A stretch of DNA of 64,000 bases from Altererythrobacter sp. BO-6. GTDB lineage: Bacteria > Pseudomonadota > Alphaproteobacteria > Sphingomonadales > Sphingomonadaceae. Below are positions 6,274 to 57,518 of the stretch, piece by piece. Position 1 is the first letter of the stretch; every line of letters starts with the position of its first letter. The translations under genes were made by a program, and so were the position numbers. The notes under the pieces are model-generated. The model did not search any database, was not told the origin of the DNA, and saw only the letters and a program-made list of their open reading frames with translations. Where the stretch lies: the NCBI RefSeq assembly GCF_011047315.1, contig NZ_CP049259.1, positions 1,178,001 to 1,242,000 of the forward strand, read 5' to 3'.

Positions 6274-6758
6274 CTGCCGTCGCGATTGTCGCGCCAATGC
6301 TCCAGCGCGCGGCGCGCCATGCCCGAGAGCGGTTCGGGCAGCGAATGCGGCGGAAAAAAGCGCGCCTCGGTAACCTCGCGTCCGTCCGGCTGCGGGTGCA
6401 GATCAATCGTCGCAGCGAACAGGTGCATGGTATGCGGCGAGCCGGAAATCACGCCATCGAACGTGCCAAGCGCGTTCAGCCGCACCAGTTCCAGCCCCAG
6501 TTCCTCGCGCACTTCTCGCACGGCCGCAGCCAGCGGATCCTCGCCTTTGCCGATACCGCCTCCGGGCAAATACCAGGCCGCCGGGCCATAGCTGTGCTGC
6601 AGCAGCAGGATCGAGCCATTCAAGTCGGTCAGGATCACATTGCAGCCCGCGAGCGGCACCTTGCGCCAGGTCCTCCAGCGATGCCGCACGCGGTAGGCAA
6701 CCGGCAACAGCGCGCGGTGCACCGCCGCGGGAATGATACGGATGATCAGGTGAAGCAT
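6270..6758 (-). CDS. Nudix hydrolase
   Basis: 162 residues with a complete Nudix box, G-x5-E-x7-REVREELGL, starting at GGIGKGEDPLAAAV, so metal binding and pyrophosphate hydrolysis should be intact. A hydrophobic, arginine-rich N-terminus of about 35 residues precedes the domain, which is unusual for small housekeeping Nudix enzymes and may attach it to membrane. Its start overlaps the end of pgl by 13 bases, so the two are probably cotranscribed and translationally coupled. Substrate not predictable. Confidence 0.82.
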   Translation of the reverse strand: MLHLIIRIIPAAVHRALLPVAYRVRHRWRTWRKVPLAGCNVILTDLNGSILLLQHSYGPAAWYLPGGGIGKGEDPLAAAVREVREELGLELVRLNALGTFDGVISGSPHTMHLFAATIDLHPQPDGREVTEARFFPPHSLPEPLSGMARRALEHWRDNRDGS

Positions 6759-7369
6759 GTAACCGGCTGGCGCGCGGCACCGAGCAGCCGCGCGATCGGC
6801 AAATCGTGTTCGCGCCGGATCGCCACGTCGAACACGTCGCGCTTGTCCGCAGCGCCGCCCAGCGTGAACAGCAATGAATCCGACGCGAGCAGCGCGGGAA
6901 TGGTCAGCGTGATCCGGTCAAACGGCGCATGCGCGGGCAGCGGATCGGGCGTGAGCCGCCGCACTGCCTGCGGGTCGTCAACCTTGGGATCGGTGTTGGG
7001 GAACAGCGAAGCGATATGCCCGTCGCCGCCCATGCCCAGCCAGGCGACAGCGAAATGCGGCGGCTGGCTGTCTTCGGATAGTGGATGAATGCGCGCGCCG
7101 ACCGGTTCGAACAGCGCGCGGATCTTCCCGGTGTTGGACGCCTCGTGATCCTCGGGCACGATCCGGTCATCGCCCGGCCACACCACCAGCCGCGACCAGT
7201 CAAGATCGCGGGTCACCAGTTCTGCCATGATCGGGAACGGGGTCGAACCGCCGGGAACGGCGATTGCGACATCGCCATTGGTCGCGTCGAGCGCGGCCGC
7301 GATCCGCGCATCCAGCCAGTCGGCAATCGCGCCAGTATCGGCGCCGTCCACTATCGTTACATCGGCCAT
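6746..7369 (-). CDS. pgl: 6-phosphogluconolactonase
   Basis: 207 residues of the NagB-like lactonase family. VAVPGGSTP-type phosphate loop (IAVPGGSTPFPIM) near residue 37, WPGDDRIVP in the middle and GMGGDGHIASLFP as the catalytic region are all present. It hydrolyses 6-phosphogluconolactone in the oxidative pentose phosphate / Entner-Doudoroff route. It is shorter than the typical 230-260 residues but retains all motifs. It stands alone, without zwf or edd nearby, and is followed by the overlapping Nudix gene. Confidence 0.86.
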   Translation of the reverse strand: MADVTIVDGADTGAIADWLDARIAAALDATNGDVAIAVPGGSTPFPIMAELVTRDLDWSRLVVWPGDDRIVPEDHEASNTGKIRALFEPVGARIHPLSEDSQPPHFAVAWLGMGGDGHIASLFPNTDPKVDDPQAVRRLTPDPLPAHAPFDRITLTIPALLASDSLLFTLGGAADKRDVFDVAIRREHDLPIARLLGAARQPVTCFT

Positions 7370-7383
7370 GCAGCCCTGATAGC

Positions 7384-7416
7384 AAAAGGGCCGCTCCCGG
7401 CTAGCGGAAACGGCCC
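7384..7416 (-). terminator. Rho-independent terminator of dps
   Basis: Read on the minus strand, a GGGCCG/CGGCCC stem encloses a further CCGCT/AGCGG pairing and is followed directly by TTTTGCT. It lies about 45 bases after the dps stop codon and just before pgl starts. Confidence 0.75.
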
Positions 7417-7459
7417 ATTCGCATATGTATTCGTCGTCACGCAGTGAGCCTGCGGTAAA

Positions 7460-7924
7460 TTAGTTCTCGAGCAGCGAGCTCAGGAACCAGACGCGCTCTT
7501 CGGCCATGTCGGTCCAGTCATCGATCAAGCCATCGGTGGCGTTATCGCCTGCATCTTCAGCGAGCTGCTTCATGCCCTTGAGGCGTTCGACCAGCTTGCG
7601 GTTATCATCGCGCAATCCCGCGATCATGTCCTCCGCGCTCAGCGTGGTGCTGTCCTGGTCCTTGATCTGGGTGTGCTTTGCGACCGCGCCGACCGAGGTC
7701 AGCGTGTCGCCGCCATTCTTCCGCACCCGCTCGCCGATCGCATCGATCTGGTCGCGAATCTCGATCGCCTGCTCGTCAAATAGCAGGTGCAGGTCGCGGA
7801 AGCGCGGGCCCTTCACGTGCCAGTGGAAGTTCTTCGTCTTCAGATAAAGCGCGAAGTGATCGGCCAGCAGGGCGTTGATTTCAACGTTGAGGGCGGTCAT
7901 CGAATTGTTGTTAGGGTCCAGCAT
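7460..7924 (-). CDS. dps: Dps family ferroxidase / DNA-protecting protein
   Basis: 154 residues, a single four-helix ferritin-like domain of normal Dps length. The inter-subunit ferroxidase signature KNFHWHVKGPRFRDLHLLFD is intact (its first His, then the downstream Asp/Glu of LLFDEQ). It oxidises ferrous iron with peroxide and stores iron as a dodecamer, protecting DNA. The N-terminus lacks the lysine-rich DNA-binding tail of E. coli Dps. The start could also be the methionine at residue 9 (MTALNVEI). Single gene with its own terminator. Confidence 0.93.
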   Translation of the reverse strand: MLDPNNNSMTALNVEINALLADHFALYLKTKNFHWHVKGPRFRDLHLLFDEQAIEIRDQIDAIGERVRKNGGDTLTSVGAVAKHTQIKDQDSTTLSAEDMIAGLRDDNRKLVERLKGMKQLAEDAGDNATDGLIDDWTDMAEERVWFLSSLLEN

Positions 7925-8080
7925 GTGCGGAGGCTCCTTTTCGGGGTTGCAGCCTGCGATCGACCCGCCGAATGCAGGGTTCGCGGCTTCGTGAATGTTC
8001 AGTTATATAATGCATCGAGGCCCGATTTTGTTCCGGGAATAGCTGGCCACTTTGATCGAACTAGTCGATCGAAATGCCAA

Positions 8081-8635
8081 TCATGGAGCAATCGAAGCGA
8101 TCAATAGCGCTGCCCCGAGCAATATTGCGGCGAGCACCATGCGTATGAAATAAAATAATTTTTGACGCTGCGAAAATTTTTCCAGCCAGAGCCATGCCAG
8201 AACTATCGCCGCCACGCTCGCCAGCCCGCCGCCAGCCAGTGCGGGCAGCGGATCGGCCAGCGCAGCGGCCGCAGCGAATACGCACAAACGCGGCGCGTCG
8301 AGCTGCTGCCGGGCGAACAGCACCAATGCCGCCGCGCCCAGCGAAAGCGTCGGCTCTTGCAGGTGCACTGGCCTGACCGGAATCGCCAGTTCCACCGCCG
8401 CCAGCAGCAGCCCCCCGGCCACGATCCAGCCGCGCGGCTGCCCGATCACGTGGCTCGCCAGTTCCGCCCCGAGCAGCGCCATCACCGCCGTGGCAGCAAG
8501 GCTGGATGCAATAGCTGTGACGAGCAAAGCGGGTGACCGGCCATGCGCCTGCACCAACGCGCCCAACGTCCGCGCGGCGCGACCACCGGTCGAGGTCGCA
8601 ATACAGGCGAGAAAGGCGATCAGCGCGGCGTCCAT
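8081..8635 (-). CDS. Small integral membrane protein of unknown function
   Basis: 184 residues with five to six predicted membrane helices and short polar loops. The repeated pattern of an N-terminal acidic helix (MDAALIAFLACIATSTGGR) and a later LADPLPALAGGG segment is vaguely like a two-repeat transporter such as the TMEM165/Gdt1 (UPF0016) group, but the diagnostic ExGDK/R motif is absent, so that link is only a guess. An overlapping longer frame is rejected as its arginine/glycine-rich translation is typical of antisense frames in this GC range. Confidence 0.55.
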   Translation of the reverse strand: MDAALIAFLACIATSTGGRAARTLGALVQAHGRSPALLVTAIASSLAATAVMALLGAELASHVIGQPRGWIVAGGLLLAAVELAIPVRPVHLQEPTLSLGAAALVLFARQQLDAPRLCVFAAAAALADPLPALAGGGLASVAAIVLAWLWLEKFSQRQKLFYFIRMVLAAILLGAALLIASIAP

Positions 8636-36000: not shown

Positions 36001-36048
36001 AGGTGGTGCCGCTTACGTGACTCGAACACGTGACCCCATCATTACGAA
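36001..36048 (-). repeat. tRNA-Thr(CGT) 3' fragment, left attachment-site copy of a genomic island
   Basis: On the minus strand the 48 bases read from the anticodon loop TTCGTAA (anticodon CGT) through GGGTC variable region, ACGTG-TTCGAGT-CACGT T arm and AAGCGGC acceptor strand to ACCA. The 5' half of the tRNA is absent to the right (the next bases read TTTAGCGCATT on the plus strand). An identical 48-bp copy lies at 57471-57518 in the same orientation. Confidence 0.85.
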
Positions 36049-41035: not shown

Positions 41036-42754
41036 ATGGAGAGCCAAGTCCACGTCCCCTACATCCGTGAAGTTCTAGTATTCCTTTTTGTCGCAGGCCT
41101 TATCGTTCCCCTGCTTCAGCGCAAAGTGAGCCCTATCATAGCCTACTTCATTGTGGGCAGCGTGATTGGCCCATATGGGCTTGGCTTGTTGCAGGCCACT
41201 TTTGAACCGGTCTCGTGGCTTGTCATTACCGATCTGGACGGGGTCGCGTTGCTGGCAGAACTGGGTGTAATCTTCTTACTTTTTGTCATCGGCTTGGAGC
41301 TCTCATTTCAGAGACTCTGGGGAATGCGCCGCCTGGTCTTTGGCCTCGGAAGTGCGCAGATCGCCGTAACAGGCGCTGCGATTGCAACCATCGCTTCTTT
41401 TTGGGGCAATCCTCTCTCTACCTCGGTCATTCTTGGCGCCTGCCTTGCATTGTCTTCTACGGCGATAGTCACACAACTGCTTATTGAAGGCGGGCGTCTC
41501 GGTTCACCAGCTGGCCGGACGACCTTCTCGATCCTGTTAATGCAAGACCTTGCAGTTGTCCCGATACTGTTCGCTGTGAGCGTCCTCGGCACAATGGCCG
41601 TCGGTAATGTGGCTGTCGGGTTTGGGCTGGCGCTTGCCGAAGCGATCATAACGATAGCTGTGATCTATGGTGTTGGACGTATCGCCATTCGTCCCGTTCT
41701 TCAAATTGTCGCAAGTACTAACAGCCGCGAAGCTTTTGTGGCGATCATTTTGCTGCTGGTCCTGGGTACTGCCGCGCTTACTGGCTTTGCTGGACTATCC
41801 ATGGCTCTGGGCGCCTTTCTTGCCGGGTTGCTCGTTGCTGAGACTGAGTTCCGTCATCAGGTCAAAATCGATATTGAGCCATTCAAGGGGCTCATGATGG
41901 GGCTGTTCTTCCTGTCAGTCGGGATGGGGGTCGACTGGCGCATAGTACTGGATAATCCGTTCTGGATTGTCGCATCTGCCTTCGGGCTTGTAGGGCTGAA
42001 GATCGCCATCATTTTCGGCCTTTGCTTGCTTTGGAGCCTTCCGCGAGGCCGTGCCGCAGAGGTTGCCATTGTGCTCGGACAGGCCGGAGAGTTTGGTTTT
42101 CTGGTAGTCGGGCTGTCCGTGACAGTTGGGCTCCTCCCAGCTGAAATCGGCCAATTCATGTTGATCGTGGTTGGTCTGACAATGCTTGCTACGCCAGTCA
42201 TGGACAAGATGGCGAGGCGCGCTGCTATTGCGTTGCAACATTCAGACGACAGTCGAGGAGGCTGGTATCATGTCGACGACGAGATCGAAGGGCACGTCAT
42301 TATTGCGGGCTATGGAAGAGTCGGCGAAACCATTGCGGGTGTTCTCGACCGGGAAGACTTTCGCTACATCGCAATTGAGCGGGACCCTACTGTAGTTAAA
42401 GCGGCGCTGGCTGAAGGACGTCCTGTCAGACTGGGAGACGCCTCTCTTTTGCCCATATTGCGCGATTCGGGGCTGAATCGAGCGTCTGCGATAGTTGTGA
42501 CAATTGCGGACGAGGAAGCGACCGAACATCTTACTGCTGAAGTGAAGCGGATTGCTCCGCGTGTGCCGATCTTTGCGCGAGCGCGGAACCAAAGTCACGC
42601 GAAGCGCCTTCTAGATCATGGCGCGACAAGGGCCGTACCTGAAACCACTGAAGGGAGTTTGCGCCTAGCCGAGCTTCTCTTGATCGAATCTGGCACAGAT
42701 GAAGATACGGCAAGCCGTCGGATTGAGCTAGAACGGGCCCTCGGAGACGTTTGA
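41036..42754 (+). CDS. CPA2 cation:proton antiporter with RCK (TrkA-N) domain
   Basis: 572 residues. About 13 membrane helices with the conserved LELSFQRLWG and the double-glycine helix of the CPA2 family (residues 1-390), followed by a cytoplasmic NAD-binding regulator domain with GYGRVGETIAG (G-x-G-x2-G). The layout matches KefB/KefC and related potassium efflux systems. It likely exchanges K+ or Na+ for H+ under stress. It is followed, after a strong palindrome, by a universal stress gene, a common pairing. Confidence 0.87.
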   Translation: MESQVHVPYIREVLVFLFVAGLIVPLLQRKVSPIIAYFIVGSVIGPYGLGLLQATFEPVSWLVITDLDGVALLAELGVIFLLFVIGLELSFQRLWGMRRLVFGLGSAQIAVTGAAIATIASFWGNPLSTSVILGACLALSSTAIVTQLLIEGGRLGSPAGRTTFSILLMQDLAVVPILFAVSVLGTMAVGNVAVGFGLALAEAIITIAVIYGVGRIAIRPVLQIVASTNSREAFVAIILLLVLGTAALTGFAGLSMALGAFLAGLLVAETEFRHQVKIDIEPFKGLMMGLFFLSVGMGVDWRIVLDNPFWIVASAFGLVGLKIAIIFGLCLLWSLPRGRAAEVAIVLGQAGEFGFLVVGLSVTVGLLPAEIGQFMLIVVGLTMLATPVMDKMARRAAIALQHSDDSRGGWYHVDDEIEGHVIIAGYGRVGETIAGVLDREDFRYIAIERDPTVVKAALAEGRPVRLGDASLLPILRDSGLNRASAIVVTIADEEATEHLTAEVKRIAPRVPIFARARNQSHAKRLLDHGATRAVPETTEGSLRLAELLLIESGTDEDTASRRIELERALGDV

Positions 42755-42808
42755 ACTCAAACTAAGGCACTCAAGACCACTGGAAACTTGAACACCACCC
42801 ATTGATGA

Positions 42809-42847
42809 CCAACCGCTATATGATATAGAATATCATATAGCGGTTGG
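42809..42847. promoter_or_regulatory. 39-bp near-perfect palindrome between antiporter and usp
   Basis: Two 18-base arms, CCAACCGCTATATGATAT and its exact complement, separated by AGA. It ends 15 bases before the usp start codon, right at the ribosome-binding region (AGGAG follows). No U-tract follows, so it is not a simple terminator. It could be an operator or a structure on the mRNA controlling translation of usp. Confidence 0.6.
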
Positions 42848-42862
42848 AATAGGAGCATCAGT

Positions 42863-43705
42863 ATGGTGAGTGCGCCAATTGTTGTGGCGACTGATTTCAG
42901 TGCGCGGGCTGATCGAGCCCTCGATCGGGCTCTGCTCCTTGGGAAAGAGCGACACTGCACGGTACGCGTCATTCATGCTCTGGATTTCATGGATGCGGAC
43001 AATGCGGATTGGGCTAGTCTCGAAAACCGAATGGCGCAAACGATCGGTGAGGCGCCATGCCCTATTGAAACTGCTTTTCCGGAAGGTTCCCCTCCCCATG
43101 CGATAGCGACTGAAGCCCGGGCATCGGGTGTTGAGTTGCTCGTGCTTGGGCCAGCACGCTACAATTCCCTCGGAGACTACTTCCTTGGCACAGCTGTCGA
43201 TTACGTGCTGCGGAACACAGATCGTCCGACATTGGTGGTGAAGAATAGAGCTCGGATGCCATATGGCCACATTGTGGCGGGCACTGATTTTTCACCTGCT
43301 TCAGCTCACGCAATAATCGAAGGCGCTCGGCTTTTTCCCGACGCCCAGTTGCACGTCGTCCATGCATGGCATGTCCCGTTCGAAGGACTTCAGCGCGACC
43401 AATATGTGGCTGAGGAGATCGAAGCGGATGAAAGCAAACGGCTCGCGAAGTTCATGGACGATCTTAAGTCACAAGCCCCAAACCTGAAGGATGCGACGTT
43501 TCGCTTAGTTCGCGGAGCAGTCCATCAAGCGCTTACGACTGAAATTCGTTCGCATGACTATGATCCAGCTGCAACATTGGTTGTCTTAGGAAGCCACGGC
43601 ACCAGCGGTTTTCGCCAGGCAGCTTTAGGAAGCGTTACAAGTGACCTTCTGACAACCCTCGCCTCCGACATTTTGGTTATCAATACGAAAAACGTCGAGC
43701 CATAG
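42863..43705 (+). CDS. Universal stress protein with two Usp domains
   Basis: 280 residues, two tandem UspA folds. Domain 2 has the nucleotide loop GSHGTSGFRQAALGSVTSDLL pattern (G-x2-G-x9-G-S), while domain 1 has a degenerate GPARYNSLGDYFLG, so only the second may bind ATP. Typical role is in stress tolerance and, beside antiporters, modulation of ion fluxes. The start follows AGGAGCATCAGT. Expression probably affected by the palindrome just upstream. Confidence 0.85.
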   Translation: MVSAPIVVATDFSARADRALDRALLLGKERHCTVRVIHALDFMDADNADWASLENRMAQTIGEAPCPIETAFPEGSPPHAIATEARASGVELLVLGPARYNSLGDYFLGTAVDYVLRNTDRPTLVVKNRARMPYGHIVAGTDFSPASAHAIIEGARLFPDAQLHVVHAWHVPFEGLQRDQYVAEEIEADESKRLAKFMDDLKSQAPNLKDATFRLVRGAVHQALTTEIRSHDYDPAATLVVLGSHGTSGFRQAALGSVTSDLLTTLASDILVINTKNVEP

Positions 43706-44206: not shown

Positions 44207-44479
44207 TCAGGTTGGGTCAGGGACGTAGTAACGGCCATCGTCCCGGCGGCCCCAGTTTGGCCATACGGGGACCTGCTGAATGCCTTTGTTCAAGGTCAGG
44301 CCAACGTGCCTCCGGTCGAAGCCCAAGCGCGCCAGTACTTCAACAATGGACGGCCCCTGATCGACGCCTTCAGTGATGCAGGCACTGATGAGTGCAAGAA
44401 CGCGGTCATTGGTGTTCACCTTGTTATCCTGAAGCGACAGATCGAGTGCGCCAAGGCGCGTGATGAGGGCCTCGTTCAT
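44207..44479 (-). CDS. Hypothetical protein downstream of the integrase
   Basis: 90 residues, start overlapping the integrase stop (ATGA), so cotranscribed and coupled. The sequence MNEALITRLGALDLSLQDN, then ALISACITEGVDQGPSIVEVLARLGFDRRHV, looks like a small helical protein with a possible helix-turn-helix (PSIVEVLARLGFDRRHVG). It may be a small DNA-binding or excisionase-like accessory, but that is a guess from size and position. Confidence 0.5.
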   Translation of the reverse strand: MNEALITRLGALDLSLQDNKVNTNDRVLALISACITEGVDQGPSIVEVLARLGFDRRHVGLTLNKGIQQVPVWPNWGRRDDGRYYVPDPT

Positions 44480-45636
44480 TCTGCCACCTCCGATAGACCA
44501 AGGCTGCTGGCGCCTGCCTCAACAGCAGCAGCGAGGGTCTTGTCGGCAAGGTGAGCGTACCGGGCTGTGCTTTCCGGCCTTAGGTGCCCGGCGATCTTCC
44601 CGGCAACGAGAAGCGAAACGTTCTGCGAGACCAAGGCGCCGATTGCGGCATGCCGGAGTGAATGCGGGACTAGATTCGGAAGCCCGGCCTCCTTGCACGC
44701 AGTAGCCCAAGCCCTTTTGAAGTTGTCGAAGGGCTTAAGGGTTTTGGGGTTGGGCAACAGCCAAGGGCAACCATCATAACGAGGCAGTTCGTTGATAACC
44801 GCCATGGCTGCTTTGCTAAGGGGCACATAACGTGATCGGCCATTCTTGGTCATGGGAATTTGCCAAACAGAACGCTCGAAATCGATATGCTCGACCCGGG
44901 CATTCAGCAGTTCGCGCTTTCTTGCCGCTGTGGCCAGAAGCAACTGTACTATAGGCTTCAGCAGAGGGTTCGCTGATTTCGCACAGGCTTCGAGTAACCT
45001 CTCGACCTCGGCAGGCGATAGCAGACAGGTGCGTTTGTTATCGTACCGAGGCCGTGCAACGGCTGCGACCGGATTGCTTTCGGCGCCGGGCACCTTCCAG
45101 GACCGCCCCAGGGTATAAGCGCGGTTCATGACCAGCCGGGTTCGATCGACCGAGGCTGGAGCATGGGTCTTGCCCAGTTCGGCAAGAAAACGCTCGATCT
45201 CCTGCGGGGTGATCTGATCGAGAGGCAGCTTTCCAAAGCGCGGCTTCAAATAGAGCCGGTGAGTCATTTCCACACATGCATGAGAACGAAGCGTGTTTTG
45301 GGCATGCTCAACATGCATGTCGGACAGGTCGGCGAAGGTCAGCATGGCCTTGCGGCTAGCCTTATCGGCAGCAGGATTGCCGCCCAGCACCAGCCGCGAA
45401 CGCAGTTCCTTCGACCGACGCCTCGCATCGTCGAAGGTGATATCACCGACACCACCGATTTTGAGTTGCGCAGCCTTGCCATTGGGCTTGGTGTAATAAT
45501 GATAATAGGTTTTGCCGGATTGCCGAACCTCAATACCGAAGCCGGTGAACTCAGTGCAGCGATAGACGAATTTCCGTTTGTTCGGTGGGCAAGTGACGTC
45601 GCGACAGAACGCGGATGTAAGTTTAACTTTGGCCAT
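44476..45636 (-). CDS. Tyrosine recombinase (phage-type integrase)
   Basis: 386 residues with the catalytic set intact: R239 in TAARKREL, H325 and R328 in PHSLRHA, H351 in AGHLRPE and nucleophile Y360 in TARYAHL. The N-terminal region resembles the DUF4102/SAM-like arm-binding part of P4-type integrases. It most likely inserts the element at a tRNA 3' end. It lies about 8.4 kb inside the left repeat, not at its edge. Upstream 268 bases contain no gene. Confidence 0.92.
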   Translation of the reverse strand: MAKVKLTSAFCRDVTCPPNKRKFVYRCTEFTGFGIEVRQSGKTYYHYYTKPNGKAAQLKIGGVGDITFDDARRRSKELRSRLVLGGNPAADKASRKAMLTFADLSDMHVEHAQNTLRSHACVEMTHRLYLKPRFGKLPLDQITPQEIERFLAELGKTHAPASVDRTRLVMNRAYTLGRSWKVPGAESNPVAAVARPRYDNKRTCLLSPAEVERLLEACAKSANPLLKPIVQLLLATAARKRELLNARVEHIDFERSVWQIPMTKNGRSRYVPLSKAAMAVINELPRYDGCPWLLPNPKTLKPFDNFKRAWATACKEAGLPNLVPHSLRHAAIGALVSQNVSLLVAGKIAGHLRPESTARYAHLADKTLAAAVEAGASSLGLSEVAE

Positions 45637-49529: not shown

Positions 49530-50363
49530 TCAGCCTTTAATCGACGTGAGATATTGCAGCATTGCCGCATGGGTATCATCTTCCAGCTCAACCATGACGC
49601 GGCGATTGTCGCTTGCATCTTTCCACCGCCTGACGAGGCCTGATGCAACTAAATTGCCGACATGGCGGAAAGCCGTCGAGAAAGGCACCTGCGTGGCAGC
49701 GCAAGCACTTGACATCGGAATCGGAGTATTCTCCAGCTTTGCCAAGGTAAGTTCCAGCAAGATGTCCCATGCCGGATCTGAAAAAAGCTCGGGGTCCAGG
49801 AAGTCCATCCTTTTTCGCCGCAATAAGATGATGTTGCGCACGAAATCCTTAAGGCCACCCCCGCTTATTTCGCGAATGAGGTCGCTAGGTTGAGCGCCTT
49901 TTGCTGCTGCGGTTTGAAGTGCGGAGAGCTTCCAGAGGCCCAGCAATTGCGCACGGCGGGCTGATGCACGGCGAAGGGCTGACACCATTTCATCACGCTC
50001 AATCGGTTTTGCCAGAAAATCGACCGCGTTCTGGCGCATTGCGTCAACGGCTGTTTGCAAGGAGCCGAACCCGGTGACCATCAATGTTACAATTGGGCGA
50101 GCTGTCGTGTAACGCGCGTCTATCTCAGCCAGAAGGGCCATGCCGTCCATGCCCGGCATTTGCAAATCCGTCACAACGATCCCAATTGTCTTGTCCTCGG
50201 TCAAGGCCCTTAAGGCCTCCGCGGCGCCCGAAGCCGATCGATGAGCATAGCCCAAGGAGTCGATTATCTCACAATACTCGCGCAGGCACGCCTCATCATC
50301 ATCGATGACAAGCACGGTGCATGAGGTGATCATGCCATCTTCCGCGTCAATTAAATTGCTCAT
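49530..50363 (-). CDS. Response regulator: receiver plus winged helix
   Basis: 277 residues. The receiver (about 15-135) has the acidic pair in VIDDDEA, phosphoacceptor D66 in TDLQMPGMDG, T in LMVTGFG and the conserved lysine in FLAKP. A C-terminal region (about 180-275) has AATQVPFSTAFRHVGNLVASG and a VxRWKDASDNRR wing, a MarR-like winged helix. It likely binds DNA and regulates the neighbouring sensory genes. It is divergent from the mini-hairpin and H-NOX genes with about 218 bases between. Start could also be the methionine at residue 11. Confidence 0.82.
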   Translation of the reverse strand: MSNLIDAEDGMITSCTVLVIDDDEACLREYCEIIDSLGYAHRSASGAAEALRALTEDKTIGIVVTDLQMPGMDGMALLAEIDARYTTARPIVTLMVTGFGSLQTAVDAMRQNAVDFLAKPIERDEMVSALRRASARRAQLLGLWKLSALQTAAAKGAQPSDLIREISGGGLKDFVRNIILLRRKRMDFLDPELFSDPAWDILLELTLAKLENTPIPMSSACAATQVPFSTAFRHVGNLVASGLVRRWKDASDNRRVMVELEDDTHAAMLQYLTSIKG

Positions 50364-50581
50364 CTTAATCCGCCGTCGCGCTCGCCATGTTACGTTCTTG
50401 GACCCTCGCGCGCCATATCAATGCGCAACCTACTAGATAGGTGAAATGCTCTCACTTTGAGAACATTCGTACTTTTTGTTGGCAAACACATCATCAAGCA
50501 ATCAAAGGCATAGGAAAGGGCGAGATGCGGCAGGCCTGACCTCGGAACACCCTGTGCATAGGAAGCTAAGGATTGAAGTAA

Positions 50582-50770
50582 ATGAAACTCAATCGAGACG
50601 ACTTACATTTATTAAGGCAACCACTCAATGTTATTCGCTTAGCAAAAGGTAATATGCTCAGGAAAATTGAGAATGATAAAAACATAGATAACAAGGCGTA
50701 CTATATTTCTAAATTAGAAATAATAGAAGATCAGATAGATAGATTATATAGTTTGATGATAAAAATTTAG
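50582..50770 (+). CDS. 62-residue protein resembling an isolated histidine-kinase dimerisation hairpin
   Basis: Sequence start MKLNRDDLHLLRQPLNVIRL. HLLRQPLNVI agrees with the kinase H-box pattern H-x-L-R-x-P-L, with His at residue 9, followed by a turn and a second helix (YYISKLEIIEDQIDRLYSLM). The protein ends there, with no ATPase domain. It is AT-rich in contrast to the rest of the window, but its frame is clean and it directly precedes H-NOX (51 bases). It could pair with or compete with a kinase's dimerisation domain. That function is inference; chance similarity is possible. Confidence 0.6.
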   Translation: MKLNRDDLHLLRQPLNVIRLAKGNMLRKIENDKNIDNKAYYISKLEIIEDQIDRLYSLMIKI

Positions 50771-50820
50771 CTTTATTTTATTATGTTATCTAATTCTAAA
50801 TAAATTCCGGATTCTATAAT

Positions 50821-51363
50821 ATGTATGGAATGATCCACTGTGCTGTTCGCGAAATGGTAATCAATCAACTAGGGGTTGACGAATGGGCATCGCTTGAGCG
50901 TGAAGCAAGAATTACAGCAGCAGATCAGATCAGTTTAAAGGTCTACGATGACGCGTTGACCATGCAAATAATCAAGGCGGCTTCCGAGCGCCTTGGCCTG
51001 ACGATGCCGGATTGTTTAATGGCATTCGGCAGATACTGGATTGGTTTCGCCGCCAATGGCTCGTTTAAGTCAATCATGGAATTCACTGGCGATGACATCG
51101 TCACCTTCGTAGGCAATTTGGACCAGATGCACCGAGCAGTGGTGAGAACGCTACCGAGCGCACGGATGCCATCTTTTATGGTCATTGAAAGTGGGCTTGA
51201 GAGCTTCAGAGTCCAATACCGATCGGAACGCGATGGCCTCGAACGGTTCGTTGCCGGTCTCTTTGAAGGTCTCTTGGAGCACTTCGGGCTAGTGGGTGAT
51301 GTCACGCTTACGAAGCAAGACAGAGAAGGGCTGGAGTTTGTCGTTAATTTTCGTGAGCGGTAA
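50821..51363 (+). CDS. H-NOX (haem nitric-oxide/oxygen binding) sensor protein
   Basis: 180 residues, standard H-NOX length. Proximal haem ligand H104 lies in NLDQMHRAVVRTLPSARMP, and the propionate-binding Y133-x-S-x-R137 (VQYRSERDG) is intact. The distal pocket Tyr needed for stable oxygen binding is not evident, so nitric-oxide selectivity is likely. It has the usual soluble helical N-domain MYGMIHCAVREMVINQLG. It is followed by the kinase gene after a few bases, the canonical H-NOX/kinase pairing. ATG 50821 is the start. Confidence 0.92.
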   Translation: MYGMIHCAVREMVINQLGVDEWASLEREARITAADQISLKVYDDALTMQIIKAASERLGLTMPDCLMAFGRYWIGFAANGSFKSIMEFTGDDIVTFVGNLDQMHRAVVRTLPSARMPSFMVIESGLESFRVQYRSERDGLERFVAGLFEGLLEHFGLVGDVTLTKQDREGLEFVVNFRER

Positions 51364-51370
51364 TTGAGTG

Positions 51371-52978
51371 ATGTCAGTTACCTTCAGCCAGAACGATATC
51401 GCCTTTCTGTATCCAGCCTATCTCTTGATCGATCGGCATTGGATCATCCGGTCATTCGGGCCAACCATCTCTCGCCAAGTTCCAGATGTGAGATCCGGTG
51501 ATCCATTTGATGCTCATTTTAGAGTTTCTAACTCAACACAATATCATGCGGCGCGACCTGACCTTCCTCGAAGATCAACTATCGAGTTGCGATCGCTCGT
51601 GAGCCGTTTGAAACTGACCGGCAGCATCATTGATATAGATGACGCCTACCTCCTAGCCTTAAATATCTCATCACTGCCCGAATCTGGGGACCTAACAGGC
51701 CTCAGTATATCTGACTTCGCACCAAACGATCCGTTTATTGATACCGTGCTGCTTCTCAGCATGCAGAATGCCATGCTTAAAGAAGCCAAAGAATTGTCCG
51801 CGAACCTGGCTCTTGAACGCCAGAAAAGTGATGCCCTATCAGCCCAGATAAGCAGAGTAGCAAGTTGCCTGGCGCACGATTTAAACAATTATCTTTCTGT
51901 CATAAAATTGAATTGTAATTTACTAAAAATTCATAAATATGATAATTTTCAGATCGATAGCATCATAAATATAATAGAGGAAACTTCCGAAAAGAGCTCC
52001 GGAATGGCACTTTCTCTTTTATCTCTGTCTTCATCAGCAAGTGCGCGTGCGAATATATTCTCAATTGATGATTTTTTATATGATTCATTACCATATTTTG
52101 AGGCCATTTCAGGAGGATGCGCAAGCATCAAGCTGAAACTTCAAGCCCCCGGAGTGCTGATAAACGCAGATCTTAGCGGATTTATGAACTGCCTGACAAA
52201 TCTAGTTCTCAACGCACGTGACGCGATTGTCGAAGCAGGGGATGTGACAATCTCGACCCAAACAGAACCCGTTGACCGGTCTCATAAGGAGCACTTCACC
52301 CAGCCATCGCATTTGCTTCTAACAATCTCAGATTCTGGTGCGGGTATGAACGAAGACGTCCTATCGAAGGCCTTCGACCCATATTTTTCGACGAAGGAAA
52401 AGGGCACAGGGATCGGCTTGACTTCCGTACAAGGATTCTTGGAGGCTCACGGTGGAACCATTGAGTTGCAGTCGTCCCCCGGCCTAGGGACTCAGGCGAT
52501 TTTGCGCTTTCCAATTGCCAAAGAGGAAGGGGCGGCAAGCATCGATGAAATAAATCGACGATCGACGCCCCCAGGGCCAGCTGCAGAACGGCCCCGCATT
52601 ATTGTTGTTGATGATGAACGGTATGCAATGGAGGCCTTGTCGGAACTTCTCGAGACTGAAGGTTTTTACGTGCTCGGAGCAACTAATCCCAATGAAGCAT
52701 TGGCTTTGATTGGGCGCCACCTTTCAGAGGGAAGGCCTTTTGATATTCTGTTGACCGACATAGTCATGCCCCAAGGCAATGGGATTGCTCTAGGGCGGGC
52801 AGCACAAGAAGCATGTCGCGGTTTGAAAGTTATTTTGATGAGCGGGCTATGCAATGAGCCGATGTCCCTTGGAAATAACTTTCCGTTGCTTGCCAAGCCC
52901 TTAAAGATTGAGGAAATTCTGGCGACCATCCGACGTCTTTTAGGCGCCGACTTCAACGCTAACGAAGGACCTAATTAG
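51371..52978 (+). CDS. Hybrid histidine kinase with HNOBA domain and receiver
   Basis: About 535 residues. N-terminal HNOBA domain (1-160): a segment LTGLSISDFAPNDPFIDTVL and the following coiled coil pair with H-NOX in known systems. Then H-box LAHDLNNYLSVI (H170, counting from GTG 51368), N-box NLVLNARDAI, G1 DSGAGM, G2 GTGIGL, and a C-terminal receiver with VVDDE and phosphoacceptor D464 in LLTDIVMPQ. It should receive the NO state of H-NOX and act as kinase/phosphatase in a phosphorelay. Four-base convergent overlap with the FixJ-like gene. The ATG at 51371 (preceded by GTG 51368) is taken as the start. Confidence 0.92.
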   Translation: MSVTFSQNDIAFLYPAYLLIDRHWIIRSFGPTISRQVPDVRSGDPFDAHFRVSNSTQYHAARPDLPRRSTIELRSLVSRLKLTGSIIDIDDAYLLALNISSLPESGDLTGLSISDFAPNDPFIDTVLLLSMQNAMLKEAKELSANLALERQKSDALSAQISRVASCLAHDLNNYLSVIKLNCNLLKIHKYDNFQIDSIINIIEETSEKSSGMALSLLSLSSSASARANIFSIDDFLYDSLPYFEAISGGCASIKLKLQAPGVLINADLSGFMNCLTNLVLNARDAIVEAGDVTISTQTEPVDRSHKEHFTQPSHLLLTISDSGAGMNEDVLSKAFDPYFSTKEKGTGIGLTSVQGFLEAHGGTIELQSSPGLGTQAILRFPIAKEEGAASIDEINRRSTPPGPAAERPRIIVVDDERYAMEALSELLETEGFYVLGATNPNEALALIGRHLSEGRPFDILLTDIVMPQGNGIALGRAAQEACRGLKVILMSGLCNEPMSLGNNFPLLAKPLKIEEILATIRRLLGADFNANEGPN

Positions 52979-53577
52979 AGGGCTATCCCTGCAGAGACTG
53001 CTATCTTCACGGCTTCCGGTGAATTGGCCGCGCCCAACTTCGCGATCATCTTTGCGCGATGTATCTCAACAGTTCGTGGACTTATCTTATATTTCGCGGC
53101 AATTGCGCGATTGGACATCCCTAGGGATACGCATTTCAAAACCTGCCGCTCCCTGGCAGTTAGTCCTCGCAAAAGGTTTTTGGCGTGAGACAAATTCCTT
53201 CTGTGTTGGCTCGTATCGGTGAGCGAGTCTCTAAGCCTAGTCAACCGTTCTGGCACTACCACCTCCTCCGACGGTAGGCTAAAGTAGTCCATGGCTCCAT
53301 TGCGTACGGCCTTCACAACCTGCTGAGTATCAAGATCTCGCGTAAAGCATGCGAAAGGCCAGTGCTCCTCCATGCCCTCCAAACGTTCGGCAAGATCCAT
53401 AACCACATTTTTGATGTCATGAACCAAAGTGAGGCGCGGCGACAAACGATGGATAAATAAATCATTTAAGGATTCGAATGGCTCAACATGGAAACCATTG
53501 TCAAACAACAAATCGTACATTGACTTGCGACTGGAAAAATCTGAGTCGATCAAAAATATGGCAGGTTTAAATTTCAT
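52975..53577 (-). CDS. FixJ/NarL-like response regulator with atypical receiver
   Basis: 200 residues. C-terminal LuxR-type helix-turn-helix: LTARERQVLKCVSLGMSNRA and KISPRTVEIHRAKM. The N-terminal receiver has D54 (LVHDIKN) in the phospho-acceptor position and an acidic DSD near residue 11-13, but the K-P motif is replaced by S-L-P (YFSLPSEE), so phosphorylation signalling may be altered. It would bind DNA. Convergent to the kinase gene, so an expected output of that kinase or of the regulator at 49530. Confidence 0.8.
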   Translation of the reverse strand: MKFKPAIFLIDSDFSSRKSMYDLLFDNGFHVEPFESLNDLFIHRLSPRLTLVHDIKNVVMDLAERLEGMEEHWPFACFTRDLDTQQVVKAVRNGAMDYFSLPSEEVVVPERLTRLRDSLTDTSQHRRNLSHAKNLLRGLTARERQVLKCVSLGMSNRAIAAKYKISPRTVEIHRAKMIAKLGAANSPEAVKIAVSAGIAL

Positions 53578-53816
53578 AAGGCCTTGATAACCGATTGAGA
53601 GGTTCAGCTGAAAGTTGAATCGTTCTCAAAATGGAATCTACCGTATTGGCTCATAAGCTGCCGATTTTTGGTCCTTTTATCATTTGGATACTGACCGCTT
53701 ATTGGTAAGTGAGCGGCAATCAGCTCGCCCGCCTCTTCAATGCATTCAATTCGAAAATGATTTGGGGTGGTAGGGTCCTAATGCCCTCGTATCGATACTG
53801 GCGTGGGGAGGTCAGT

Positions 53817-54058
53817 ATGAGATTCTTTTTCGCGACGAGGAGGGTTCGGCCTCTGCTGAGTATGCCTTAATCTTAGGGCTGATGGGGAGCGCGTTGGTAA
53901 TCGCTACCCTCAAACTGGGTAGCACTGTCAGCCATCAGATGACCAACGCAGCTCATGAAATCCTCTCTCATAACGCCACATCAGCGGCGCCCAGCGGCGA
54001 GGCTGAGCCTAGAGGCAAAAGCAAGGCTAAAGGCAAGGGAAAGGGTCAGTTCAAATGA
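53817..54058 (+). pseudogene. Flp-type (type IVb) pilin with apparent frameshift
   Basis: The downstream frame reads RDEEGSASAEYALILGLMGS with the Flp processing signature G|SASAEY (Glu +5, Tyr +6). It lacks a start codon. ATG 53817, preceded by GGGAGGTCAGT, opens one frame away and gives MRFF. One extra T in the five-T run (53826-53830), or two fewer, would join them into an ~80-residue pilin MRFFFRDEEG... The C-terminus is an unusual Lys/Gly tail (GKSKAKGKGKGQFK). It is probably a real pilin gene with a sequencing or biological frameshift. No pilus assembly genes are near. Confidence 0.65.
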
Positions 54059-54124
54059 CCGGTTCTCAGATGAGTTTATGCAGTCCAGACAAGTGGCGCC
54101 CCAGACATTCTGACGCGCGATAAT

Positions 54125-55699
54125 TTAGGATCGTTCGTTTGCACGTCTAATTTGCTCGTTAGCAATAGACATTTTGGTGCGAGTGCCATTCAAGAGCCCT
54201 GACCCGGTTGCCTTTAGGGCCAAGGATCCAAAATCGCGAAGAAACATAACTGCATTATCCGGTCTCCCATAGAGGGAACCTTGCAAATAGTCGCACCCTG
54301 CCTGAAGCGCCATAACTTCATCCTCAAGGCTGTTCACTCCTTTACAGGTCACTTCCATACCGAGCGTTTTCGCCAATTTCACGCTAGCTTGCAGTAAAGC
54401 AATGCTGCTCGTTTGACCCGAGGCAGTGAGGAAGCTTTGGTCGAACTTGACCGCAGTGACGCCGAAAGATTTTAGTTCCTTGAGAGATGACGAGCCTACT
54501 CCAAAATTATCGACGGCGATTGTAAAGCCAACATCTGCCAATCCGCGCAAGACTGGGCCGCATTTTGGACCATGAGCGGTCCACTCTGCTTCGTCTATTT
54601 CGAGTTGAAAATTAGATGTATCCTGTCGACTGCTTATGACCAACTGCTTCAAAGCTTCTGCAAAGCGCGTGTCCAAGACCTGCATGGCTTCTATATTTAT
54701 GCATATCGACAGCCCAGGTCTCGCCTGAAGTAAACTGAACGACCTTGAAATTGCAAAAAAACTCAAGTTATCAATTTGCTGGGTGAGTCTCCCAATATGA
54801 TTGGTTTCGTATGGTGAAATGAAACCAAAATGTTGATCGCGCCAGCAAACGAAAACTTCCAATGCCTCGATCTCTCCATCTCTTGAGATGATCGGCTGGT
54901 ACTTGAGTGTAATTGCCTTCTCATTTTCGAAGGCCTCCGGAAGCCGCTTGCAAAGTTCCGCAGTTCGGACAAGTTCGTCACGCATCGTCAGATCAAAAGC
55001 TTCCACGATTGATCGCGATTTCTTGGCCTTGTACATCGCAAGGTCCGCTCGACGCATCAGGTCTGAGCTTGTCAATCCCACTTCGACTTCGGCCAAGCCG
55101 ATACTGCAACCTATTGCGACGTAAGTTCCAACTAGATCGTAGGAGCGTGCAACATTCTGATAAAGCCGACGACAGATGTCCTCGGCATCAGACTTGGTTA
55201 GATTACGAAATACGACTGCGAATTCATCTCCGCCTAATCTGAAGGCCTCGTTTGCAGGCACAATCTCGAGTAGCCGTTTGGCCACGTGCATAAGAAGCTC
55301 GTCGCCTTTCTCGTGGCCGAGCGAGTCGTTGACGTTCTTGAAGTTGTTAAGGTCGATTAATCCGAGCCAGCCCGATCCAGCCAAAGTTTGGCTCTGAAGT
55401 ACCAGTTGGTTGAGCTCTTCGTTGAGGGCTTTTCGATTCTGGAGGCCAGTTAGTGCGTCAGTACGAGCCTCTACTGACGCATGCCGTTCTCTCGCCTTCA
55501 GCTCAGAGTAGGTATGGCTCAGAACGAAGACTGTGGCAGAACTTGAGCAGGCTACCATCAGGAAGAAGTTGCCAAGAGAAGTGTAGCCATTTGTCTGAAG
55601 CCCGGCTGTCAAAATTACAGTCGCCACACTTGTGATCGCCACCATGGCAACGCCAGCTGCGACCAGAATTGACGTCAACGATTTGTCCGAAGCTACCAT
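54125..55699 (-). CDS. GGDEF-EAL protein with intact cyclase and degenerate phosphodiesterase site
   Basis: 524 residues. Two N-terminal membrane helices (about 8-30 and 42-62) then a GGDEF domain (FRLGGDEFAV, residues 154-162), which is intact. In the EAL-type domain the catalytic motifs are altered: EVFVCW for EALLRW, DNFG for DDFG, KGVN for EGVE, so c-di-GMP hydrolysis is not expected. No RxxD inhibition site precedes GGDEF. Predicted membrane-bound diguanylate cyclase with a non-catalytic c-di-GMP-binding or regulatory EAL domain. Same strand as the GAF-EAL gene. Confidence 0.85.
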   Translation of the reverse strand: MVASDKSLTSILVAAGVAMVAITSVATVILTAGLQTNGYTSLGNFFLMVACSSSATVFVLSHTYSELKARERHASVEARTDALTGLQNRKALNEELNQLVLQSQTLAGSGWLGLIDLNNFKNVNDSLGHEKGDELLMHVAKRLLEIVPANEAFRLGGDEFAVVFRNLTKSDAEDICRRLYQNVARSYDLVGTYVAIGCSIGLAEVEVGLTSSDLMRRADLAMYKAKKSRSIVEAFDLTMRDELVRTAELCKRLPEAFENEKAITLKYQPIISRDGEIEALEVFVCWRDQHFGFISPYETNHIGRLTQQIDNLSFFAISRSFSLLQARPGLSICINIEAMQVLDTRFAEALKQLVISSRQDTSNFQLEIDEAEWTAHGPKCGPVLRGLADVGFTIAVDNFGVGSSSLKELKSFGVTAVKFDQSFLTASGQTSSIALLQASVKLAKTLGMEVTCKGVNSLEDEVMALQAGCDYLQGSLYGRPDNAVMFLRDFGSLALKATGSGLLNGTRTKMSIANEQIRRANERS

Positions 55700-55871
55700 G
55701 AGCCGGGGATAGCGTTGTTCGATTAAGTTGTGCGGGAATGACGCCTAGGCAGTTATGCCTATCCTACTCACGAAAATTCTTAAGAACTCCGGCGAGTTTT
55801 TTGATGCTCGAGACACGAGGGAGCTGGCGATTACCTTCAGAACCTAGGGAGATTTTGGCGCTCTCGTTTCT

Positions 55872-57086
55872 TCACAGGCCTCTCTTTTGGAGTGACAACG
55901 CCTGCTCTTTACTTGCGGGTCTTGCAAAATGGTATCCTTGACCAAATTCGACTCCAAGGCGCTGGAGTTCTTCGGCCTCCTGGTAATTTTCGATGCCTTC
56001 GGCAATGAGCAACGTACCCGATGCCTTCGCGAAAGTGACAATTGCTTTTACAAGCGCGGCGCGAGACGGTCGCCGATCGATATTCCTCACAAAGGTCATG
56101 TCCAATTTCATGATGTCTGGTCCAACATCGAGAATATGACGCAGGCTCGAATAACCTGCGCCCACATCGTCTACTGCCAGCCGCCAATTACCCTTAAGCT
56201 TGCGTAGGTTCTCGTTCAGCGCTCCGTAATCTTTGACAGCATCGTGCTCGGAGAGTTCGATCACTAGTTTGTCCAGTTCAGCCCCAGACAGCTCTTCGGT
56301 GAGTTTGCCTGAAAGCGCCGTGCTGGCGTTGACATTTATGCTGAGGTAAATACCTTCATCAAGCCGAGGCAAGATAGCAACGGCGCGGTTGATCAGCGCA
56401 AGATCTAGATCAATCGCAAGCCCAGCTTCGAAAGCTTCTTCAAACCATCTGGTTGGCGAAACGTCATCTGCGTCAGGGAAACGGGCCAGGGCCTCAAAAC
56501 CCCACAAGCTGCGATCTGCCAGACTGACGATAGGCTGATAGACAACCTCGAAGTCACCGCGTTCGATAGTTCGGCTGATGCGAGCTCGCGCCTGCATGTC
56601 ACTCGCCTGGCGCTCAAGATGCTGCTCCATGAGCTCTGCGACCAACTTGGCAGCGATCTGCACTAGATTGAGGTTCCGTTCATTAAGATCGAAAGCCGGT
56701 TCGTGCGAGAAACAGCAGATCGATCCAAAAGTCGTACCGTTACTAAAGACAAGCGGGACACCTAGATGCCCACCGACAGGCAAGCTTCGTGTTGCTGAAA
56801 GATCACAGACAATCGGAGTAGATGCCGCATCTTTGATGATTTCCGGCAAAGTCCCTTGGGCGATATAGTGACAATAGCTCTCATCTAAAGGATCTGACGA
56901 ACCGACAGTCACTCCGGACATATCATCGTCGGCGCTTACAAAAAGGAACTCTCTCGCATCATTCGTGAACCGCGACACAAAAGCAACATCCATTGCTAAA
57001 TATTTTCGGATTCCATCTAGAATGGATTGAATCGTAGACTCTATGCTTTGGCCATTAGATTCTGATTTTTTCGACAAGTTAATCAT
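55872..57086 (-). CDS. GAF-EAL c-di-GMP phosphodiesterase
   Basis: 404 residues. The N-terminal GAF domain (about 5-160) has no heme-ligand pattern I recognise but has DESYCHYIAQ and LGVPLVF, typical of the GAF group in EAL proteins. The EAL domain (about 170-400) has the full catalytic set: EALAR, INVNAST, VIELSE, VDDVGAGYSSL, MKLDMTFV, AEGIE, and GQGYHFARP. It should degrade c-di-GMP, opposite to the cyclase beside it. Its start codon is in an AT-rich region. Likely output of the NO module through second-messenger levels (inference). Confidence 0.88.
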   Translation of the reverse strand: MINLSKKSESNGQSIESTIQSILDGIRKYLAMDVAFVSRFTNDAREFLFVSADDDMSGVTVGSSDPLDESYCHYIAQGTLPEIIKDAASTPIVCDLSATRSLPVGGHLGVPLVFSNGTTFGSICCFSHEPAFDLNERNLNLVQIAAKLVAELMEQHLERQASDMQARARISRTIERGDFEVVYQPIVSLADRSLWGFEALARFPDADDVSPTRWFEEAFEAGLAIDLDLALINRAVAILPRLDEGIYLSINVNASTALSGKLTEELSGAELDKLVIELSEHDAVKDYGALNENLRKLKGNWRLAVDDVGAGYSSLRHILDVGPDIMKLDMTFVRNIDRRPSRAALVKAIVTFAKASGTLLIAEGIENYQEAEELQRLGVEFGQGYHFARPASKEQALSLQKRGL

Positions 57087-57470: not shown

Positions 57471-57518
57471 AGGTGGTGCCGCTTACGTGACTCGAACACG
57501 TGACCCCATCATTACGAA
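57471..57518 (-). repeat. tRNA-Thr(CGT) 3' fragment, second attachment-site copy
   Basis: Exactly the same 48 bases as at 36001-36048 (anticodon loop to ACCA plus two bases). Right after it the 5' half of the tRNA is again missing (AGTAGGGGCAGG follows), so it is a junction between two tandem elements rather than the outer edge. Confidence 0.85.

What the first reader, a model, noticed from the sequence alone, without database searches (positions are those of the whole stretch)
49530..57086. Island-borne nitric-oxide sensing module joined to c-di-GMP enzymes
H-NOX and an HNOBA hybrid kinase are adjacent, with two response regulators, a cyclase with a dead EAL domain and an active EAL phosphodiesterase close by. 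H-NOX/kinase pairs controlling c-di-GMP are known (for example in Shewanella), but this arrangement with a receiver fused to the kinase, a winged-helix regulator, a FixJ-like regulator, a pilin and a kinase mini-hairpin on one mobile island appears new to me. It suggests that NO-dependent surface behaviour is a horizontally acquired trait here.
Basis: partly seen in the sequence, partly recalled or inferred. Interest (0 to 1): 0.85.

Follow-up and report, generated by a model that had tools for sequence, protein, structure and literature searches.

The report
Bare kinase hairpin in NO relay
A bacterial nitric-oxide sensing gene set carries a tiny conserved protein that is nothing but the two-helix phosphate-accepting hairpin of a sensor kinase, and it probably hands the signal from the gas-sensor kinase to a gene regulator.

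Summary
The genes are there as described: response regulator with winged helix (RR-wHTH), 62-aa "mini-hairpin", H-NOX, HNOBA-type hybrid kinase (HnoK), FixJ-like regulator, then GGDEF-EAL and GAF-EAL proteins, on a tRNA-Thr island. The core is a conserved sphingomonad module, and the mini-hairpin is its key novelty. It is a stand-alone DHp (HisKA) hairpin, directly upstream of H-NOX in 21 of 21 Sphingomonadales loci of one scan (15 of them genomes not used before) and 0 of 21 other H-NOX loci. Its profile matches 258 proteins; the histidine is kept in 127 of 129 aligned rows; selection is purifying. HnoK and RR-wHTH keep their phosphorylation residues. In four genomes where no stand-alone hairpin was found, RR-wHTH lies beside a full-length kinase whose DHp matches the hairpin profile. 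I therefore propose a relay, HnoK-His > HnoK-Asp > hairpin-His > RR-wHTH-Asp, in which a partner kinase was stripped to its hairpin and reused as a phosphotransferase. Phosphotransfer is inferred, not shown. The c-di-GMP link is not supported: no GGDEF/EAL gene was found within 5 kb in 23 other module loci.

The parts
49530..50363 (-). RR-wHTH: receiver plus MarR-like winged helix (winged helix by weak Pfam match only); predicted terminal phospho-acceptor and output
   Evidence: Pfam REC 1.4e-22; MarR_2 0.005, below cut-off; acceptor Asp, Thr and Lys kept in 22 of 22 sequences, the window included
50364..50581 (.). divergent intergenic region with a 15-base element (one mismatch) shared with the same-genus locus L210 at a similar distance from the RR-wHTH start; possible promoter or operator
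   Evidence: alignment of 2 loci; one exact copy of its 14-base core in the genome; function untested
50582..50770 (+). mini-DHp: 62-aa stand-alone DHp/HisKA two-helix hairpin with phospho-acceptor His9; predicted histidine phosphotransferase
   Evidence: homologues, His conservation, synteny, dN/dS, Pfam HisKA in 38 of 41 aligned members at E<=1, AlphaFold hairpin pLDDT 93
50821..51363 (+). H-NOX haem NO sensor; proximal His104, Pro117 and YxSxR motif present (motif roles recalled)
   Evidence: Pfam HNOB 5.3e-36; these residues invariant in the 7-row alignment; only H-NOX match in the genome at E<=0.001
51368..52978 (+). HnoK hybrid kinase: HNOBA-like N-terminus, DHp (HDLNN), CA, C-terminal receiver
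   Evidence: Pfam; catalytic residues 23 of 23; NCBIfam best match PRK13557 histidine kinase (2e-50), next CckA (4.8e-44, residues 144-525), both far below their whole-protein cut-offs
52975..53577 (-). FixJ-like LuxR regulator with atypical receiver
   Evidence: GerE 7.9e-18; REC only at 0.046; the Lys before the Pro after strand 5 is absent in 8 of 8 sequences (alignment printed, read by eye)
36004..36048 (+). left copy of the tRNA-Thr 3' repeat (island boundary)
57474..57518 (+). right copy of the tRNA-Thr 3' repeat (island boundary)
44476..45636 (-). tyrosine integrase of this island segment
   Evidence: Pfam Phage_integrase 4e-26
54125..55699 (-). GGDEF-EAL protein, EAL degenerate by eye: neighbour, not part of the conserved core
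   Evidence: not found near the module in 23 other loci
55872..57086 (-). GAF-EAL protein, EAL motifs intact by eye: neighbour, not part of the conserved core
   Evidence: not found near the module in 23 other loci

Best explanation
The core is a five-gene NO-responsive phosphorelay. H-NOX binds NO and modulates HnoK through HnoK's HNOBA-like domain (inferred from known H-NOX/kinase pairs). HnoK autophosphorylates its His and passes the phosphoryl group to the Asp of its own C-terminal receiver (residues present; reaction inferred). The mini-DHp dimerises into a four-helix bundle, takes the phosphoryl group on His9 and donates it to RR-wHTH, which regulates transcription (inferred). It may also drain RR-wHTH~P back. 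The hairpin derives from the DHp of a former full-length partner kinase of RR-wHTH, stripped of sensor and ATPase domains, so that NO sensing by HnoK could be plugged into an existing regulator. The FixJ-like protein probably acts without phosphorylation. The neighbouring c-di-GMP genes are not part of the module.
For: Real conserved gene: pN<pS in 71 of 71 kept pairs, median dN/dS 0.146 over the 35 with usable dS; 258 proteins match the 9-row profile at E<=0.01. Acceptor His in 127 of 129 rows, 112 of 114 distinct ones and 19 of 19 representatives at 80% identity; Gln at H+4 in 129 of 129. G1001, found by H-NOX alone, also has it. In 397 family genomes the hairpin adjoins 8 H-NOX loci, those most like the window's, and none of the 53 other H-NOX loci fetched has a stand-alone hit at E<0.01. 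Hairpin to H-NOX gap 9-63 nt in 25 loci. HnoK kinase and receiver residues 23 of 23, RR-wHTH 22 of 22. HnoK's receiver reads Ser-Gly in 23 of 23 and Ser-Gly-aromatic in 21 of 23, partly matching the FxSGY motif of CckA's intermediary receiver (PMC9981736, sections read), whose acceptor ChpT has a DHp hairpin (PMC3433190 passages). Partner evidence: in G022, G118, G035 and G345 RR-wHTH lies beside a full kinase whose DHp matches the hairpin profile, E 5e-6 to 3e-14. The genome's only Hpt match is in a CheA-like frame.
Against: No phosphotransfer has been measured. His is Gln in 2 of 129 rows, one in a locus (L120) whose HnoK and RR-wHTH keep their residues. The genome also has a ChpT match that could serve HnoK. 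The window hairpin alone scores E=0.05 to Pfam HisKA, below cut-off; its profile finds no kinase among PDB sequences; fold matches of a helical hairpin are weak. HPK4-like DHps in full kinases are common (44 of 384 other genomes of the class match at E<=1e-5), so part of the partner evidence could be chance; in G022 a single-receiver gene lies between kinase and RR-wHTH. The tree split of hairpin- and kinase-partnered RR-wHTH has weak support, 49/72, and no formal clade test ran. A different hybrid HnoK type in Caulobacterales and Hyphomonadaceae has no hairpin. The H-NOX profile was built from 7 of the 8 loci it then scored highest.
Confidence: 0.57

Rival explanations
1. The mini-DHp is mainly a phosphatase or phosphate sink for RR-wHTH~P: a bare DHp that keeps the regulator off, while HnoK or another kinase phosphorylates RR-wHTH.
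For: Isolated DHp domains of EnvZ and NtrB suffice for phosphatase activity (PMC3510030, passages). The amide residue at H+4, the phosphatase position in HisKA kinases by that paper, is invariant here (Gln, 129 of 129), whereas His is lost in 2 of 129.
Against: His kept in 127 of 129 is more than a phosphatase needs. A hybrid kinase with a C-terminal receiver normally needs a His acceptor, and no other one is encoded in the module.
Confidence: 0.22
2. HnoK hands its phosphoryl group to the housekeeping ChpT, tying NO to CtrA control, and the hairpin tunes HnoK by binding or heterodimerising with it.
For: HnoK's DHp-CA-REC part is among the matches of CckA models; the genome holds one ChpT match.
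Against: DHps like the hairpin's are found in kinases beside RR-wHTH; hairpin and RR-wHTH also lie about 8 kb apart, without H-NOX, in G361.
Confidence: 0.12
3. One reading: the module controls c-di-GMP through the adjacent GGDEF-EAL and GAF-EAL proteins, as H-NOX systems in Shewanella do.
For: The two genes lie within about 4 kb of HnoK on the same island; other H-NOX genes in this family sit directly beside GGDEF-EAL genes (L055-L063); the hairpin of G361, which has no H-NOX nearby, adjoins an EAL protein; L211 has an HD-domain frame about 6 kb away (by eye).
Against: No GGDEF/EAL frame found within 5 kb of 23 other module loci; neither window enzyme has a receiver domain in Pfam.
Confidence: 0.08

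Closest known systems
ChpT of the CckA-ChpT-CtrA relay
   Same: dimeric histidine phosphotransferase with a DHp hairpin, serving a hybrid kinase (PMC3433190 passages)
   Different: ChpT has a C-terminal ATPase-like domain and serves the cell cycle; the mini-DHp is only the hairpin, gene-linked to H-NOX
Spo0B
   Same: phosphotransferase whose four-helix bundle is built from the hairpins of two subunits (cited in PMC3433190)
   Different: Spo0B has a C-terminal domain and works in sporulation (recalled); no sequence relation was tested
H-NOX hybrid-kinase relays through LuxU or SypF in Vibrio
   Same: NO-H-NOX controls a kinase that feeds a histidine phosphotransfer protein or domain and then a regulator (PMC8738867 passages)
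   Different: those use canonical phosphotransfer parts shared with other kinases; here a dedicated kinase-like hairpin
Shewanella-type HnoK/HnoB/HnoD c-di-GMP circuit
   Same: H-NOX with adjacent kinase and further response regulators (PMC8738867 passages, and recalled)
   Different: outputs there are c-di-GMP enzymes; here a winged-helix regulator
Stand-alone HisKA class of P2CS-based surveys
   Same: a survey counts HisKA-only proteins as phosphotransfer proteins (PMC4618731 passages)
   Different: in the passages seen, a count without family, context or mechanism

Membership tests
H-NOX/HnoK NO-sensing pair | HNOB domain with proximal His and YxSxR motif | tested here: met
   (motif roles recalled)
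H-NOX/HnoK NO-sensing pair | adjacent kinase with HNOBA-like N-terminus | tested here: met
   adjacent in the window; HNOBA detected in 4 of 16 aligned HnoK proteins, not in the window protein itself
H-NOX/HnoK NO-sensing pair | NO binding changes kinase activity | not testable with these tools
   needs purified proteins
DHp-type histidine phosphotransferase (ChpT/Spo0B kind) | DHp hairpin with conserved acceptor His | tested here: met
   His 127 of 129; HisKA in 38 of 41 at E<=1; hairpin model
DHp-type histidine phosphotransferase (ChpT/Spo0B kind) | C-terminal ATPase-like domain | tested here: not met
   the window frame is 62 aa; hairpin frames in the other H-NOX loci are 71-102 aa
DHp-type histidine phosphotransferase (ChpT/Spo0B kind) | accepts phosphoryl from a receiver and passes it to another | not testable with these tools
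   inferred from residues and synteny only
H-NOX c-di-GMP circuit (Shewanella type) | GGDEF/EAL effectors as conserved members of the locus | tested here: not met
   none found within 5 kb in 23 other module loci (some contigs end sooner)
tRNA-site integrative island | direct repeats of a tRNA 3' end flanking an integrase | tested here: met

The most novel reading that the evidence does not exclude
A histidine kinase has been naturally reduced to its bare DHp hairpin (62 aa) and turned into a dedicated phosphotransferase that lets a gas-sensing hybrid kinase take over the reduced kinase's own response regulator: a minimal kinase-derived phosphotransferase family, spread over sphingomonads and here carried on an island.
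Probability: 0.48. Interest if true: 0.82.

Novelty: new variant of a known kind. Interest (0 to 1): 0.71.

Why it matters
If true, it shows how four-step relays can arise: keep the part of a kinase that recognises its regulator, discard the rest, and let a hybrid kinase feed it. The best known DHp-type phosphotransferase, ChpT, keeps an ATPase-like domain that does not make it a kinase; a functional bare hairpin would show that such a domain is dispensable. It would also give sphingomonad H-NOX a transcriptional output instead of the usual c-di-GMP one, and the 62-aa protein is small enough for direct structural and phosphotransfer work.
Full report
What is there. The window lies at 1,178,001-1,242,000 of a 3.04-Mb single-contig genome. 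From left to right: RR-wHTH 49530-50363(-), a 62-aa frame 50582-50770(+), H-NOX 50821-51363(+), HnoK 51368-52978(+) with HATPase_c and a C-terminal receiver, a FixJ-like regulator 52975-53577(-), then GGDEF-EAL 54125-55699(-) and GAF-EAL 55872-57086(-). A pilin-like frame (about 53819-54058, +) has no start codon ahead of its signature. The genome has one H-NOX match at E<=0.001.

Island. A 45-bp sequence with the 3' end of a tRNA-Thr occurs at 36004 and 57474 and at two places to the right of the window, the last being an intact tRNA-Thr(CGT). One tyrosine-recombinase match lies in each of the three segments so marked. This looks like a tandem array of islands at one tRNA gene; the module sits in the first (36004-57518). 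GC is 0.48 for the module, 0.54 for this segment and 0.64 for window 1-36000.

The hairpin. The 62-aa protein reads HLLRQPLNVIRL near its start, the H-box pattern of HisKA kinases (pattern recalled). Its closest homologues are 62 aa long (95, 66, 65%). Searching six frames of 397 family genomes with that alignment found short frames (85-163 aa) in eight further genomes, and a nine-row profile found 258 proteins at E<=0.01 (candidates limited to about the query's length). Over 129 rows (nine alignment members plus the 120 proteins listed) His is kept in 127, Gln at H+4 and Asn at H+7 in 129; the acid after His, which HisKA autokinases need (PMC3510030 passages), is E 71, D 50, A 6, L 2. The window protein carries L there. 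The rows are redundant: 114 are distinct and form 19 groups at 80% identity; His is kept in 112 of 114 and in all 19 representatives. Pfam HisKA matches 38 of 41 aligned members at E<=1, best 6.9e-8, but the window protein only at 0.05. dN/dS is low (median 0.146). AlphaFold gives a two-helix hairpin, pLDDT 93.4. Foldseek's two top-ranked chains are histidine kinases, though with weak E-values, and helical hairpins match many folds.

Linkage to H-NOX. In 397 family genomes, 59 have H-NOX. Eight H-NOX loci have a hairpin directly upstream and are the ones most like the window's (above 280 bits to a profile built from seven of them); none of the 53 other H-NOX loci fetched (L055-L107; best 185 bits, the rest below 50) has a stand-alone hairpin at E<0.01. 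A scan of the collection of one genome per species with two peptide patterns of this H-NOX type gave 42 loci: hairpin in 21 of 21 Sphingomonadales loci (L109-L129), in 0 of 21 others, Caulobacterales and Hyphomonadaceae included. G1001, found by H-NOX search alone, has it too. Hairpin and H-NOX are 9-63 nt apart in 25 loci; H-NOX and HnoK lie within 10 nt or overlap in 22 of 23, the exception being L114 with a broken H-NOX frame. In 385 genomes of the class, every hit at E<=1e-5 outside this one lies in a frame of 381 aa or more; in 396 genomes of the order, frames under 170 aa occur in nine, all in this family. In these samples the stand-alone form was thus seen only in this family.

Gene order. 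L111, L115, L126, L128 and the same-genus locus L210 (genome G1001) have RR-wHTH(-), hairpin(+), H-NOX(+), HnoK(+), FixJ-like(-) exactly as the window; L112 and L211 have the same genes with the FixJ-like one placed differently; Sphingorhabdus-type loci put RR-wHTH downstream and often add a receiver-less winged-helix paralogue upstream. In L210 the module sits among flagellar genes (by eye). No GGDEF or EAL frame was found within 5 kb in L109-L129, L210 or L211 (23 loci; some contigs end sooner). So the c-di-GMP genes and pilin look like local neighbours. Against this, the hairpin of G361, without H-NOX nearby, adjoins an EAL protein.

Residues. HnoK: acceptor His, Asp after it, N-box, G-boxes, receiver Asp and Lys in 23 of 23. 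RR-wHTH: Asp, Thr, Lys in 22 of 22. Hairpin His in 24 of 25 loci (Gln in L120). FixJ-like: the receiver Lys is missing in 8 of 8, so it probably does not use normal phosphorylation. HnoK's receiver carries Ser-Gly-aromatic in 21 of 23 (Leu in the window, Met in L210), and its Ser-to-Lys stretch is 18 residues in 21 of 23, against 22 in 22 of 22 RR-wHTH receivers. PMC9981736 (abstract and three sections read) describes an FxSGY motif and an unstructured helix-4 region as marks of CckA's intermediary receiver, which hands phosphoryl to ChpT. The likeness is partial: HnoK has Leu or Val, not Phe, two residues before the Ser in 23 of 23, and CckA's own Ser-to-Lys distance is 22 by the paper's numbering. 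HnoK's DHp-CA-REC part matches CckA models (second to PRK13557), far below their whole-protein cut-offs.

Where the hairpin may come from. Searching 149 family genomes for RR-wHTH at E<=1e-25 gave five: two with the module and three (G022, G118, G035) where RR-wHTH lies beside a full-length kinase (in G022 with a single-receiver gene between). In those and in G345 the kinase's DHp matches the hairpin profile (E 5e-6 to 3e-14). DHps of this type are common in full kinases (44 of 384 other class genomes at E<=1e-5), so this is suggestive, not proof. G345 is telling: RR-wHTH, full kinase, H-NOX and HnoK side by side. In G361 a hairpin and RR-wHTH lie about 8 kb apart without H-NOX, with two single receivers and two kinases among the genes between. 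The simplest reading is that the hairpin is the DHp of a partner kinase of RR-wHTH, kept after the rest was lost. The RR-wHTH tree agrees with one such change but weakly (49/72).

Mechanism. Shown: genes, conservation, synteny, intact residues, hairpin fold prediction. Inferred: NO control of HnoK, relay through the hairpin, RR-wHTH output. No stand-alone Hpt protein was found in the genome; its one Hpt match is in a CheA-like frame, and one ChpT match exists, which leaves ChpT as a rival acceptor. A phosphatase role is the strongest rival, since isolated DHp domains of EnvZ and NtrB dephosphorylate their regulators (PMC3510030 passages), and both roles may coexist.

Known background. H-NOX acting through a hybrid kinase, a phosphotransfer protein and a regulator is known in Vibrio (PMC8738867 passages). 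Caulobacter H-NOX has an adjacent HnoK whose targets were still open (PMC10746521 passages). One survey counts stand-alone HisKA proteins as phosphotransfer proteins (PMC4618731 passages). Within the held library no search listing showed a bare DHp protein in an H-NOX relay. Hence: a new variant of a known kind, with a bolder reading (a kinase reduced to a phosphotransferase) that the evidence does not exclude.

Noticed in passing
window 36004 and 57474, genome 1272469 and 1282092: Apparent tandem array of three islands at one tRNA-Thr gene, each segment with one tyrosine-recombinase match.
   Followed up: partly
L070, L076, L077, L079, L081-L087, L091-L093, L097, L099, L104: In 17 other sphingomonad loci H-NOX is followed at once by a receiver-bearing protein of about 460-540 aa; the one read (L077:7052-8470) looks like an NtrC-type regulator, with no kinase between.
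   Followed up: no
L018, L019, L020, L024, L110, L113, L114, L117, L118, L120, L122, L127: A receiver-less winged-helix paralogue of RR-wHTH lies upstream of the hairpin in Sphingorhabdus-type loci.
   Followed up: no
L022 (genome G361) 5705-6178: A hairpin without H-NOX nearby, next to two single-domain receivers and an EAL protein, with RR-wHTH about 8 kb away.
   Followed up: partly
L067 (genome G345): RR-wHTH, a 790-aa full kinase with hairpin-like DHp, H-NOX and a shorter HnoK without detected HNOBA: possible intermediate stage.
   Followed up: partly
L120 / L024 (genome G299) and protein P0160: Two distinct hairpins with Gln in place of the acceptor His; in L120 HnoK and RR-wHTH keep their residues.
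   Followed up: partly
L216 (genome G1006) 6005-8210: Winged-helix protein, H-NOX and an HNOBA-GGDEF frame in a same-genus genome: another H-NOX type beside a related DNA-binding domain.
   Followed up: no
L119 HnoK receiver: The stretch between receiver Ser and Lys appears duplicated in tandem (38 instead of 18 residues).
   Followed up: no
window 53819-54058: Flp-pilin-like frame (signature recalled) without a start codon ahead of its signature; may not be an intact gene.
   Followed up: partly
window 41036-43705: Sodium/proton antiporter with TrkA-N domain next to a universal stress protein on the same island segment.
   Followed up: no
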